The position numbers and the translations under genes are program-made. From Candidatus Aenigmatarchaeota archaeon (GTDB taxonomy: Archaea; Aenigmatarchaeota; Aenigmatarchaeia; CG10238-14; SCSR01): a stretch of 44,569 nt of DNA. Below the pieces are notes generated by a model, which was not told the DNA's origin, searched no databases, and worked only from the letters and a program-made list of their open reading frames with translations. Location: contig JACPJT010000002.1 of the NCBI GenBank assembly GCA_016187415.1, forward strand, positions 1 through 44,569. The letters are read 5' to 3'. This document shows, piece by piece, positions 171 to 44,015 of the stretch. Position 1 is the stretch's first letter, and every line of letters begins with the position of its first letter.

Positions 171-758
171 TTATCCCCAACACTTACTTTTATAACAACA
201 ATCTATACATCGTTTCTTATATACGGTTGCTTTTGGGAATCTTTCCCCTTCAATTACATCTCTAACCTCGTTCAATAATTCCAATACATCTTTCTTATTA
301 CTAAGGTTGACCTTTACCAAGTCTCCAGATTTTAAGAATTTAATAAAACCGAAAGGTACATTGTATCCCAGACATTCCTTTATAAGAAGGGCCTCCATCA
401 AAAGTTGATTTATTTGACCTCTAAAAAGTTTAGGTGGTCTGTAGCTATATTTTGCTTGTATAGGATAAGCTTCGTTCTTCTCTTTATCTATCATTATAGA
501 ATCTACTATTGTTTTTATTCCTAATCTTTCAGATACTAGATGCGCTTTAAACAACTTCGGTAATTTAGGATACTGTTTAACTACTTTGGTTCTTTTGGCT
601 TTGGTTTGATAATCGTATTCTTTTTCCCTTCCTTTGAATTCCTTCTTTGTAGTAAACTGTGGGTCTCTTAAAACCTCTGTATAATAAATTATCCGTGGGC
701 AGTATGAATAATTCATCAAATCAGTTGCTGTTATGTATTTTTTCTCCATTATAACCAC
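171..758 (-). CDS. cas4: CRISPR-associated exonuclease Cas4
   Basis: RecB-type nuclease of the adaptation module, which trims pre-spacers and helps select PAM and orientation. The 195 residues carry the Cas4 four-cysteine Fe-S signature: C20 near the N-terminus and a C-terminal cluster (C184, C187, C188, C193). The nuclease core is visible as D86 in a beta strand (TIVDSIMID), Q101-x-K103 (PIQAKYS) in place of the usual E-x-K, and Q115 in the helix that follows (QINQLLMEALL). The start overlaps the cas2 end by 38 nt; an internal Met4 at 749 would shorten the overlap to 29 nt. It lies between cas2 and the putative effector in one minus-strand operon. Confidence 0.93.
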   Translation of the reverse strand: MVIMEKKYITATDLMNYSYCPRIIYYTEVLRDPQFTTKKEFKGREKEYDYQTKAKRTKVVKQYPKLPKLFKAHLVSERLGIKTIVDSIMIDKEKNEAYPIQAKYSYRPPKLFRGQINQLLMEALLIKECLGYNVPFGFIKFLKSGDLVKVNLSNKKDVLELLNEVRDVIEGERFPKATVYKKRCIDCCYKSKCWG

Positions 759-1041
759 CTATTATCAGGAAGTCTTTTTTCCTAACCGAATCCTCCTTCA
801 AGATGCCTTCTATTATTTTGCTTCCGAAACATGAGTCGCATGAAGGGAAGATAAACACGCAGTCATTGGAGTCTTTAAGCACTTCCTTGACTTCGATTGA
901 AAGCATCTCAATCCTGTTCCTTGTAACATCTCCCAGAAAAGCACTCTTCTGAACTCTCTTCAAGCCGTAATTCTTGCATATCTTGGAAACCTTTGTTCTC
1001 TTCCCATTATTTGTTATGTCGTATACTACCCAATGCAACAT
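721..1041 (-). CDS. cas2: CRISPR-associated endoribonuclease/integration protein Cas2
   Basis: Small ferredoxin-fold protein that bridges Cas1 dimers in the spacer integration complex. I chose the ATG at 1041, which begins MLHWVVYDITNNGKRTKVSK. This puts the conserved Asp at position 8 of the first strand (VVYD) and leaves 4 nt after the cas1 stop. An upstream in-frame start at 1095 would add 18 residues lying inside cas1 and is unlikely. With this start the protein has 106 residues, slightly longer than the usual 85-100. The second strand region (CVFIFPSCDSC) and a C-terminal strand are present. Confidence 0.9.
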   Translation of the reverse strand: MLHWVVYDITNNGKRTKVSKICKNYGLKRVQKSAFLGDVTRNRIEMLSIEVKEVLKDSNDCVFIFPSCDSCFGSKIIEGILKEDSVRKKDFLIIGGYNGEKIHNSN

Positions 1042-1045
1042 GTAA

Positions 1046-2023
1046 TCACGCTGAAAACTCTCCGTAATATTCTCCTTCAAGCAGTAGCCTGACAAACTCT
1101 CTAGCCCTTTCCATTATGACTGCTTTCCAAGGTAGATTCTTATTTTTGTATTTTATCGTCCTGTTAAGAAGTTCCATTACTTCGTTTATTAATTTCTCTT
1201 TACCCCTTTCACTTAGCATGAAAACGTTTCCAGAACTTTCAAAATCGGAATCTTCAATCTGTTTCCTTGCAAATAAATTTATTACAGCCCTGTCTGCTAT
1301 AGGCTGTCTGAATTGTTCAATGAAATCAAGAACTAAGGAAGGCTTGCCGTATCGGTCGGTATGCATAAAGCCTAGATAAGGGTCTAGGCCAGCTATTATG
1401 CATGATTTCTCGACTTCGGAATACATTATCCCATATGCATAGTTCAGCATCGCGTTGAAAGGGTCTTTCGCTTCATGTTGCCTCTCGCTGAAAGGTAAAA
1501 TCCTAGACAGGCAAGAAAAATATTGAGAACTGGAAAATCCTTCTATCCCCAAAAGTTGCTGTCTTATGTCATCCATATTTCCGACGAGTGTTTCCAAGTT
1601 CTCTAACTGGGCTTCAATAGATTTTATTTCTTCCGAAAAGTCGACATTCTCCCTGGTCTTGCTTAGAGACTTGAGCATGTTTATCTGATTCTTGATCTTG
1701 GACTTTGCTATGTTTTTAATCGCTTCCGAAATTTTTGTTGATAGATACTGGGTAGCCTGCTTTCTTCTAGTCAGTGTGGTACCGCCCAATCTGCATGGGT
1801 ATATTCTGGCATAAGGCTCGCCATATTTGTTGGCGTAAACTATGTCGATGTCTTTGGACATTGCAAGTTTTATCACATTAGCCGAAATAGACGCCCCTGC
1901 GGTTATCAATATTTGCTTGACGTCATCCGCTGAAAACTCGTGTTTCTGATCCTTGGTTACAACAATGAACCTATTTTCTTCTTTCTTTATTACTGACCCG
2001 TACTCGTTAATTACCAGCTGCAT
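1046..2023 (-). CDS. cas1: CRISPR-associated integrase Cas1
   Basis: Metal-dependent integrase that inserts new spacers at the leader end of a CRISPR array. The 325 residues match the usual Cas1 length. An N-terminal beta domain (1-75) is followed by the alpha-helical catalytic domain. The catalytic residues are visible: E161 (LLGIEGFSSSQYF), H221 (YLGFMHTDRYGKPSLVLDF) and the acidic pair D233/E236 in LVLDFIEQFR. It is the first gene of the operon cas1-cas2-cas4-effector. A TATA-like AAATTTATAG lies about 17 nt upstream on the minus strand, with an inverted ATGAAC/GTTCAT repeat around it. No array is seen beside it. Confidence 0.96.
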   Translation of the reverse strand: MQLVINEYGSVIKKEENRFIVVTKDQKHEFSADDVKQILITAGASISANVIKLAMSKDIDIVYANKYGEPYARIYPCRLGGTTLTRRKQATQYLSTKISEAIKNIAKSKIKNQINMLKSLSKTRENVDFSEEIKSIEAQLENLETLVGNMDDIRQQLLGIEGFSSSQYFSCLSRILPFSERQHEAKDPFNAMLNYAYGIMYSEVEKSCIIAGLDPYLGFMHTDRYGKPSLVLDFIEQFRQPIADRAVINLFARKQIEDSDFESSGNVFMLSERGKEKLINEVMELLNRTIKYKNKNLPWKAVIMERAREFVRLLLEGEYYGEFSA

Positions 2024-29896: not shown

Positions 29897-30802
29897 CTAT
29901 GTTCTCTCGTCTATGATTTCATGCAAATGCTTTGATGATTGCAACTCCAGCAATTCGGATTCTAGCAATACAGGTATGCCATCCATGTTTTTGCTCGCCG
30001 AGCTTTTAGAGACCAAGATTGATCTTGATGAAAAAATGACGGACAACTGCCTGAGTTCGCCTACGTTATTTTTGATTTCTGACGGCGTGTTTGACAGGCT
30101 TGTTATAATTGAGGAATTGCCTTTGGCTATGATTTCAAACGGCGTGGAATTTACAGAAGAATTATCTATTCCTATTCGGGAGAATTCCGCGCTTACATCT
30201 CTCTGAAAATTGCCTTTCGGCTTGATGTATACGGATTCCGTGTGCTTCATTTCAAATGGCAGCGCCAACTCGGCACCGAGCAACCTTTCCAATCTTCTAA
30301 CGGTATCTTTCTGGGGGTTGACTCTCTTGTTCTCAATTTCATACATGGCTTTTTTCGAAATTCCAACCTGGTCAGCCAGTTCCTCAAGCGTGAGATTCCT
30401 TTCCAATCTTTTTTCCTTCAAAGCGAATGCGTTTATTTCCTGCGTATGCCTGCCCTTTGAGGAATGCGTAACTACCAGATCCTCTTCCTCAAGCATAGAC
30501 TTGAACAATTGAGGCGTCATGACGGAGATGTCAAATCTCGTATAAACCATGTCATCACCCAGATGATCCCGATTGTTCCTCTGCGATATCACAAGCGGGT
30601 ATGCCGAAAGAAAATAAGATGTCGCGCGCAAATCCAATGCATGAGATTCGTCCAGTGCGTCTATATTCAATAAATTCTTGATCAGAAACAGGTGCTCCCT
30701 TTTCGCCACCAAATCAAAAGAGCCGTGCGTCACAAATGTCTCAAAGTCGTTTTCATGCAAGGTGTTGATTATCTTGCCCATCAGGATGTTTTTATCGAAC
30801 AT
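29897..30802 (-). CDS. Archaeal HTH-type transcriptional regulator (MJ0164-like family)
   Basis: The 301 residues fit the archaeal family of putative HTH regulators. An N-terminal restriction-endonuclease-like fold (about 1-105; FVTHGSFDLVAKREHLFLIKNL) is followed by a Cro/CI-type HTH at about 127-178 (LTLEELADQVGISKKAMYEIEN). A C-terminal domain of about 120 residues (SSILVSKSSASKNMDGIPVLLE) resembles the first domain in pattern. It diverges from the tRNA gene; a repeated GGTAT/ATACC element in the spacer may be its own operator. Confidence 0.85.
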   Translation of the reverse strand: MFDKNILMGKIINTLHENDFETFVTHGSFDLVAKREHLFLIKNLLNIDALDESHALDLRATSYFLSAYPLVISQRNNRDHLGDDMVYTRFDISVMTPQLFKSMLEEEDLVVTHSSKGRHTQEINAFALKEKRLERNLTLEELADQVGISKKAMYEIENKRVNPQKDTVRRLERLLGAELALPFEMKHTESVYIKPKGNFQRDVSAEFSRIGIDNSSVNSTPFEIIAKGNSSIITSLSNTPSEIKNNVGELRQLSVIFSSRSILVSKSSASKNMDGIPVLLESELLELQSSKHLHEIIDERT

Positions 30803-30846: not shown

Positions 30847-30971
30847 GGGCGGGTAGCTTAGCCTGGTTTTCTCTGTACCAGAGAGAGCAATCGACTTATA
30901 TGTCAGCTGAGCTGAGACATCGATAAGTTAACACTCGATAAAGGTCAAGGGTTCAAATCCCTTCCTGCCCA
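30847..30971 (+). tRNA. tRNA gene with two intron-like insertions, probable anticodon UAU (Ile)
   Basis: The acceptor stem GGGCGGG pairs with CCTGCCC (30964-30970), discriminator A. The T arm is AAGGG-TTCAAAT-CCCTT (30947-30963). The D stem GCTT/GAGC encloses a 25-nt loop that contains the hairpin TCTCTG-TAC-CAGAGA; removing about 16 nt would restore AGCCTGGTT-A. The anticodon stem ATCGA (30890-30894) pairs with TCGAT (30935-30939), with loop CTTATA before an insertion of about 33 nt (30901-30933). This reads anticodon TAT with U33 and A37, and the body resembles archaeal tRNA-Ile (GGGC..GTAGCTTAGCCTGG). The variable region is 7 nt, two more than usual, so the exact 3' splice point is uncertain. 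Confidence 0.75.
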
Positions 30972-43889: not shown

Positions 43890-44014
43890 GCTTGGGTCGT
43901 CTAGTGGCCTAGGATAAAGATCGAAAGATTATAACCCTGTCAAGGTCACCACAGAGCGGCTTCGAATGAGTAAAAACTCATGGGTATACGCGGGTTCAAA
44001 TCCCGCCCCAGGCG
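43890..44014 (+). tRNA. tRNA-Asp (GUC) with two insertions
   Basis: Acceptor GCTTGGG pairs with CCCAGGC (44007-44013); discriminator G fits tRNA-Asp. The T arm is GCGGG-TTCAAAT-CCCGC. The D arm is GTCT-AGTGGCCTA-GGAT (43899-43915) and is complete. About 16 nt with the hairpin ATC-GAAA-GAT separate it from TAACC-CTGTCAA-GG, which reads anticodon GTC (43939-43941). A second insertion of about 38 nt starts near 43946 and ends near 43985. Joining GGT to TATAC would complete the stem TAACC/GGTTA. It holds the hairpin ATGAGT/ACTCAT. The splice points in the anticodon stem or variable loop are not settled, and a variable loop of 3 nt would be short. Confidence 0.75.
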
Positions 44015-44015
44015 C

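What the first reader, a model, noticed from the sequence alone, without database searches (positions are those of the whole stretch)
30847..30971. tRNA with probable UAU anticodon and two insertions
The body is tRNA-Ile-like and the loop reads C-U-UAU-A before the intron. Most archaea read AUA with a CAU anticodon modified by TiaS; UAU is rare and has been reported in a few reduced or deep archaea. The D loop also has a 16-nt hairpin insertion.
Basis: partly seen in the sequence, partly recalled or inferred. Interest (0 to 1): 0.65.

Follow-up and report, generated by a model that had tools for sequence, protein, structure and literature searches.

The report
Three-intron isoleucine tRNA reading AUA codons
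A tiny uncultured archaeon reads the isoleucine codon AUA with an unusual UAU-anticodon tRNA whose gene is broken by three introns, and relatives keep the middle intron in a shared fold that may help set how the anticodon is read.

Summary
Window 30847-30971 (+) is a tRNA-Ile gene with anticodon UAU. It carries three introns, not two: 15 nt in the D loop, 18 nt at 37/38 and 17 nt at 43/44. [quoted passage not shown] The genome (a DPANN archaeon, Aenigmatarchaeota by its relatives) has no detectable TiaS (0 of 156 phylum genomes over the cut-off) or TilS. Its three CAU tRNAs look like Met tRNAs. AUA is the commonest Ile codon here (349 of 720). So this tRNA is very probably the AUA reader. UAU-reading archaea are already known (N. 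equitans, K. cryptofilum, ARMAN-2). What seems new: tRNA-Ile(UAU) in 42 of 57 class relatives, all with a 37/38 intron. In 39 of 42 that intron pairs over 6 bp or more with the D arm (6 of 35 control introns), and its start pairs with exon 30-32 around a hexaloop holding UAU. I infer, without biochemical evidence, that this fold serves a step on the anticodon before splicing. Against: 3 of 156 phylum genomes have a UAU tRNA without this intron, and no TruA/Pus1-family gene was found.

The parts
30847..30971 (+). pre-tRNA-Ile(UAU) gene, 125 nt; mature tRNA 75 nt
30897..30899 (+). anticodon T-A-T (UAU), nt 34-36; loop CUUAUA|A
   Evidence: CTTATA found in 42 genomes
30869..30883 (+). intron 1, 15 nt, in the D loop; BHB central helix CTGG (30863-30866) / CCAG (30878-30881), bulges TT|T and AG|A
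   Evidence: the same BHB logic fits the differing D-loop inserts of G003, G014 and G009 (read)
30901..30918 (+). intron 2, 18 nt, at 37/38; BHB central helix CTTA (30895-30898) / TGAG (30913-30916), bulges TA|T and AC|A
30925..30941 (+). intron 3, 17 nt, at 43/44; BHB central helix ATCG (30919-30922) / CGAT (30936-30939), bulges AT|A and AA|A; inner helix AGT/ACT
   Evidence: G015 has the same intron with a one-pair longer inner helix (AGTT/AACT)
30906..30912 (+). intron-2 element GCUGAGC, complementary to D-arm GCUUAGC (30856-30862)
30902..30904 (+). intron-2 element GUC, complementary to exon nt 30-32 GAC (30893-30895); closes hexaloop UUAUAU
29897..30802 (-). divergent neighbouring gene of a helix-turn-helix-like protein (name from reading, not searched); a similar gene start lies beside the orthologues in G001, G003, G009, G014 and G015
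   Evidence: read directly from the flanks

Best explanation
This is the AUA-decoding isoleucine tRNA of an Aenigmatarchaeota archaeon. It carries U34 in the gene, instead of a C34 that TiaS turns into agmatidine. The transcript contains three BHB introns that the splicing endonuclease (one PF01974 gene in the genome) would cut out, giving a standard tRNA-Ile(UAU). Shown from sequence: anticodon, introns, missing TiaS and TilS, heavy AUA use, conservation in the class. Inferred: that it is spliced, charged with Ile and reads AUA. The middle intron is not just any BHB intron: across the class it pairs with the exon beside the anticodon and with the D arm, giving a non-cloverleaf precursor with UAU in a hexaloop. 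My preferred, unproven reading is that this fold is a substrate for a step on U34 (or sets the order of splicing) before the intron is removed, so that the finished tRNA reads AUA and not AUG. I put tRNA identity and three introns at about 0.9, the conserved fold at about 0.8, and the U34-step role at about 0.3.
For: Exact BHB-guided splicing gives tRNA-Ile(tat). TiaS FLD domain PF08489: 0 of 1 own genome, over the cut-off in 0 of 57 relatives and 0 of 156 phylum genomes, while 4 control archaea score. TilS family TIGR02432 not found in the own genome. AUA 349 of 720 Ile codons in 19 window ORFs. UAU orthologues in 42 of 57 class relatives, all with a 37/38 intron. D-arm:intron helix of 6 bp or more in 39 of 42; mean score 16.5 against 14.2 when introns are swapped between genomes (0 of 2000 reach it) and 10.3 for shuffled introns (maximum of 1000 is 11.3). 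Control: 6 of 35 non-UAU introns, mean 10.4. Exon 31 and intron +3 can pair in 41 of 42; swapped mean 30.5, 0 of 5000 reach it. D13 and its partner: T-A 10, C-G 12, T-G 1, C-A 3, Fisher p = 0.001. The D-arm:intron pairing is in the MFE of 32 of 42 precursors; for this one the MFE is -48.8 against -29.3 kcal/mol for a cloverleaf with the BHBs of introns 1 and 2.
Against: 3 of 156 phylum genomes have a UAU tRNA without the 37/38 intron (a lower bound, since the pattern asks for TAGCTYAG): G151 and G152, which keep a T-arm insert, and G132, which looks bacterial to me and may be a contaminant. So the intron is not indispensable. The enzyme that needs the intron in yeast (Pus1) has no relative found here: PF01416 absent. 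Per-genome dinucleotide shuffles were weak (15 of 32 at p <= 0.05). Relatedness of the genomes inflates the permutation tests. In some genomes one intron stretch serves both the BHB and the D-arm pairing. No UAU tRNA was found in 15 of 57 relatives. There are no RNA or modification data.
Confidence: 0.82

Rival explanations
1. The D-arm pairing is a by-product. The BHB needs an intron strand TRAG to pair with CTTA of the anticodon loop, and the D arm happens to contain CTTA or CTCA, so the same strand pairs there as well. The intron is then an ordinary BHB intron with no further role.
For: In G006, G013 and G028 one stretch serves both. D arms are much alike among tRNAs. Three genomes have a UAU tRNA without the intron.
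Against: In the own tRNA, G003, G014 and most family-6 genomes the D-arm complement is separate from the BHB strand. Some genomes instead pair with the 3' D strand (for example G002, G018, G024, G040, G048, G053, G054) or in a shifted register (G039, G052), and G043, with a hairpin insert in the intron, keeps the complement. Swapping introns between genomes lowers the score (0 of 2000). The 31:+3 pairing is not part of the BHB.
Confidence: 0.35
2. Two introns only: the D-loop intron and one long intron of 33 nt (30901-30933) at 37/38, the tRNA keeping a 7-nt variable loop.
For: The second TCGAT also pairs with ATCGA, and CTTAT pairs with ATAAG inside the stretch; ARAGORN also accepts this product.
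Against: It leaves a 7-nt 3' bulge and a 7-nt variable loop (AAAGGTC). Orthologues without intron 3 have 5-nt loops (AGGTC, CGGTC). The three-intron model gives 4-bp helices with 3-nt bulges at every site, and G015 keeps intron 3 with a one-pair longer inner helix.
Confidence: 0.08
3. A modified Met-like CAU tRNA reads AUA and the UAU gene is minor or dead.
For: There are two elongator-like CAU genes (L010, L018) besides the initiator (L033), one more than strictly needed.
Against: No TiaS or TilS found. Both CAU tRNAs begin GCYGRTG, not GGGC as the Ile tRNAs do. The UAU gene has intact stems, intact BHBs and orthologues in 41 other genomes of the 57 examined.
Confidence: 0.04

Closest known systems
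Archaeal tRNA-Ile3(UAU) of Nanoarchaeum equitans and Korarchaeum cryptofilum (PMC8450103, PMC6000648, passages read)
   Same: UAU in the gene, reported without tRNA-Ile2(CAU); the K. cryptofilum gene also has an intron that its tRNA-Ile(GAU) lacks
   Different: Three introns here; TiaS not found across a whole phylum sample; an intron pairing with the D arm is not mentioned in the passages read
ARMAN-2 (Micrarchaeum) pre-tRNA-Ile(UAU), an in-vitro splicing-endonuclease substrate (PMC12397907, passages read)
   Same: DPANN archaeon, UAU anticodon, intron-containing precursor
   Different: Its endonuclease is of the epsilon-2 type; here the single PF01974 protein is about 190 aa with one match to the domain
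[quoted passage not shown]
   Same: Same isoacceptor, three introns including D arm (12/13) and 37/38
   Different: Eukaryote; third intron at 53/54 instead of 43/44
Yeast tRNA-Ile(UAU), intron-dependent pseudouridine 34 and 36 by Pus1 (PMC4090602, passages read)
   Same: UAU tRNA-Ile with a 37/38 intron that could serve an anticodon modification
   Different: No TruA/Pus1-family gene found here; no modification data
Multi-intron tRNAs of Thermoproteales (recalled; reference titles seen in PMC4090602 and PMC8450103)
   Same: Several BHB introns at non-canonical positions in one tRNA
   Different: Different phylum; here the 37/38 intron is conserved across a class

Membership tests
archaeal tRNA-Ile3(UAU) | mature anticodon UAU in an Ile-type tRNA body | tested here: met
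   ARAGORN tRNA-Ile(tat) on the spliced sequence; GGGC acceptor, A73 and ATCGA/TCGAT anticodon stem shared with the own tRNA-Ile(GAU), L021
archaeal tRNA-Ile3(UAU) | no TiaS | tested here: met
   PF08489 absent in the own genome and over the cut-off in 0 of 156 phylum genomes; 4 control archaea positive
archaeal tRNA-Ile3(UAU) | no tRNA-Ile2(CAU) | tested here: met
   Three CAU tRNAs seen: L033 initiator type (AGCGGGA...CCGCTA), L010 and L018 elongator-Met type; assembly 93.9% complete, and tRNAs with several introns could be missed
archaeal tRNA-Ile3(UAU) | charged with Ile and reads AUA only | not testable with these tools
   needs biochemistry
BHB tRNA intron | 4-bp central helix with two 3-nt bulges at the splice sites | tested here: met
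   read directly for all three introns; exact products checked
BHB tRNA intron | splicing endonuclease in the genome | tested here: met
   one PF01974 match, 2.6e-28; relatives of known structure; one expected catalytic Lys looks replaced (see Noticed in passing)
BHB tRNA intron | excision seen in RNA | not testable with these tools
   no RNA data
intron-dependent Psi34/Psi36 (yeast type) | UAU anticodon with a 37/38 intron | tested here: met
   42 of 42 UAU genes found among 57 relatives; but 3 of 156 phylum genomes have one without the intron
intron-dependent Psi34/Psi36 (yeast type) | Pus1/TruA-family enzyme | tested here: not met
   PF01416 not found in the own genome (12 of 14 controls positive)
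cis box C/D guide intron (tRNA-Trp type) | anticodon-loop complement ahead of box D and a C-like box | tested here: not met
   1 of 42 UAU introns has a C/D-like string, made by its CTGAGC element; the own intron has none

The most novel reading that the evidence does not exclude
The 37/38 intron of tRNA-Ile(UAU) in Aenigmatarchaeota is a cis-acting licensing element. It refolds the precursor so that UAU sits in a hexaloop held by exon-intron pairing, a U34-modifying enzyme unrelated to Pus1/TruA acts on that form, and only then does the precursor refold into the BHB form and get spliced. This would be an archaeal, independently evolved counterpart of intron-dependent anticodon modification in eukaryotic tRNA-Ile(UAU), and would explain how a U34 tRNA avoids reading AUG without TiaS.
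Probability: 0.27. Interest if true: 0.85.

Novelty: new variant of a known kind. Interest (0 to 1): 0.66.

Why it matters
How an archaeon without TiaS reads AUA with U34 and avoids AUG is an open question; I recall, but did not read here, a study in which a U34 version of a halophile tRNA-Ile also bound AUG. This phylum sample offers at least 42 UAU genes with a structured intron, plus a few natural losses of the intron, so the idea that the intron is needed for anticodon modification becomes directly testable. The recurring link between UAU tRNA-Ile and introns in yeast, a red alga, K. cryptofilum, ARMAN-2 and now this group is suggestive. For annotation, such genes are missed by the tRNA finders used here.

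Tried and rejected
Single 33-nt intron (rival 2), disfavoured on bulge size and variable-loop length. Bacterial TilS pathway, not found. Box C/D guide role for the UAU intron, rejected. H/ACA guide in cis: considered on paper only; the guide strands would be in the wrong order. Per-genome dinucleotide shuffles had little power on 13-25 nt introns, so I moved to swaps between genomes. A CTCATA scan of the own genome gave 251 sites and was not used. Rows dropped: 5 of 40 control tRNAs (L006, L108, L134 and L145 could not be segmented by my rule, L120 had too short an intron); many controls were hits of the UAU model, which if anything favours them. In one search, 3 of 8 endonuclease loci (L075, L076, L077) did not pass my motif filter. 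15 of 57 relatives gave no UAU gene (G010, G012, G016, G021, G033, G034, G036, G037, G041, G044, G045, G046, G049, G050, G056); I cannot say whether it is absent, unassembled or hidden by introns. In one search, four further pattern matches (L149, L150, L157, L159) were judged not to be tRNAs on reading them. In one search, two of six matches (G006, G143) were judged from the printed string only.

Full report
What is there. The stretch 30847-30971 on the + strand begins GGGCGGG and ends CCTGCCC-A, a 7-bp acceptor stem with one G-U pair. The T arm is AAGGG-TTCAAAT-CCCTT and the anticodon stem ATCGA/TCGAT. ARAGORN and Rfam do not call the locus, and it is not among the 37 tRNA-model matches in the own genome. 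The RNA folded alone is unusually stable (z = -3.9). The window lies in a 735-kb genome, 93.9% complete. So the host is a DPANN archaeon, very probably of Aenigmatarchaeota.

Three introns. The first five orthologues show what is exon. In G001, G003, G009 and G014 the anticodon stem is followed at once by AGGTC or CGGTC. Here and in G015 extra sequence follows it. Reading BHB motifs (4-bp helix, 3-nt bulges, cut after the second bulge nucleotide) gives three introns: 30869-30883, 30901-30918 and 30925-30941. The joined product is 75 nt and ARAGORN calls it tRNA-Ile(tat). A model with one 33-nt intron at 37/38 also gives UAU but leaves a 7-nt variable loop. The anticodon does not depend on the choice.

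Is it the AUA reader? TiaS (PF08489) is absent in the own genome. It is over the cut-off in 0 of 57 relatives and 0 of 156 phylum genomes (one match below the cut-off, in G028, in a frame with two stops), while four control archaea score. TilS (TIGR02432) was not found. Three CAU tRNAs were seen: an initiator with large inserts (L033; 5' end) and two elongator-like genes (L010, L018); none has the Ile-type GGGC acceptor of tRNA-Ile(GAU), L021. In 19 window ORFs AUA makes up 349 of 720 Ile codons. An AUA reader is needed and this is the only candidate found. That it is charged and used is inferred.

Conservation. A covariance model built from six precursors was run on 57 class relatives, own genome included. 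Reading the matches gave 32 genomes with CTTATA in a tRNA-Ile body. A pattern that does not ask for an intron, run on the other 25 genomes, gave 10 more. Total 42 of 57, all with an intron at 37/38 (13-78 nt). To look for the opposite I searched 156 phylum genomes for the form without that intron: six matched, and of the four I read in full three are tRNA-Ile(UAU) without the 37/38 intron. These are G151 and G152 (one genus, T-arm insert kept) and G132 (no insert, bacterial-looking). The other two matches, G006 and G143, I judged from the printed string only not to be tRNAs. So the intron is the rule, with exceptions.

A shared fold. The MFE of the own precursor is not a cloverleaf. The intron strand GCUGAGC pairs with D-arm GCUUAGC, and GUC at intron +2 to +4 pairs with exon 30-32 around a UUAUAU loop. 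Across the 42 genomes the 30-32 pairing is possible in 40, in the forms GTC/GGC, GAC/GTC, GCC/GGC and GTC/GAC; nt 31 and intron +3 can pair in 41 of 42 against 30.5 after swapping (0 of 5000). The D-arm helix is 6 bp or more in 39 of 42; the mean score beats swapped introns (0 of 2000) and shuffled introns (0 of 1000). Of 35 other tRNA introns from the same set of genomes 6 reach 6 bp. D-arm nt 13 and its intron partner vary together within families f1, f4 and f6: over all families T-A 10, C-G 12, T-G 1, against C-A 3 (f10 twice, f19 once; in f10 a shifted 8-bp pairing exists instead) (Fisher p = 0.001, relatedness not corrected; 16 of 42 introns lack the CTNRGC form and were not in this count). 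The D-arm:intron pairing is in the MFE of 32 of 42. For the own precursor the MFE is -48.8 kcal/mol; a cloverleaf with the BHBs of introns 1 and 2 is -29.3. Dinucleotide shuffles one genome at a time were weak (15 of 32 at p <= 0.05).

How it may work. The secure part is ordinary: transcription, removal of three introns by the splicing endonuclease (one PF01974 gene), ligation, and use as the AUA reader. The open part is why one intron keeps this fold. In yeast the same isoacceptor needs its intron for pseudouridines 34 and 36 (PMC4090602, passages), and in C. merolae it has three introns and complex intron effects on pseudouridylation (PMC9602550, abstract and passages). By analogy I suggest an anticodon step before splicing. 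The enzyme cannot be a TruA/Pus1 relative if one search is right, so the analogy is one of logic, not of parts. The main rival is that the D-arm match is a side effect of BHB sequence needs.

What is known. UAU in place of CAU is reported for N. equitans and K. cryptofilum (PMC8450103, PMC6000648, passages), and ARMAN-2 has an intron-bearing pre-tRNA-Ile(UAU) used as a splicing substrate (PMC12397907, passages). Full-text searches listed no paper whose title or abstract start describes UAU tRNA-Ile in Aenigmatarchaeota or an intron:D-arm fold; the library holds open-licence papers only. Hence a new variant of a known kind.

Noticed in passing
L010, L018, L029, L036, L008 (own genome); L113, L114, L118, L121, L100 (relatives): 37/38 introns of elongator Met, Leu, Lys, Arg and Trp tRNAs look like cis box C/D guides: a complement of the own anticodon loop, then a box-D-like YYGA, then a GATGA- or ATGA-like box C. 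In 9 of 10 introns that I picked, the fifth nucleotide upstream of the D-like box pairs with nt 34 (C34 or U34), as expected for a 2'-O-methylation guide. Known for tRNA-Trp and suggested for N. equitans tRNA-Met (PMC3491384, passages); the wider set may be new.
   Followed up: partly
L073:1237-1806: The splicing endonuclease reads NIRAT where M. jannaschii, M. kandleri and ARMAN-2 have SVRK; the Lys there is the catalytic one by recall. Relatives L071 and L074 read NIRAK. It also has four residues more than M. jannaschii EndA near the place of the ARMAN loop (YGKPLPEEEPN).
   Followed up: partly
L003:2808-2946 (-), own genome: The initiator tRNA-Met gene seems to carry large inserts near the 5' end and D arm (AGCGGGATG ... 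GGCTCATAACCCGG), so it too is missed or under-scored by tRNA finders.
   Followed up: no
L010 and L011, own genome C6:211184-211369: A second elongator-like Met tRNA lies 8 nt before a second, unusual tRNA-His (TCCCGG..., TTCGATTC) near a contig end; another tRNA-His is L017. Possibly acquired genes.
   Followed up: no
window 43890-44015: Another insert-bearing tRNA gene in the window: ARAGORN reads a tRNA-Ser(CGA) with an intron only when introns are allowed, while L028 is a second Ser(CGA) candidate. The identity is unsure.
   Followed up: no
window 171-2023: ORFs that look to me like Cas4, Cas2 and Cas1 lie together at the start of the window (names from reading the translations, not searched).
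   Followed up: no
L137, L152, L153, L154, L155, L156, L158, L161, L166, L167: Several relatives carry a further insert in or next to the T arm of tRNA-Ile(UAU), as C. merolae does.
   Followed up: no
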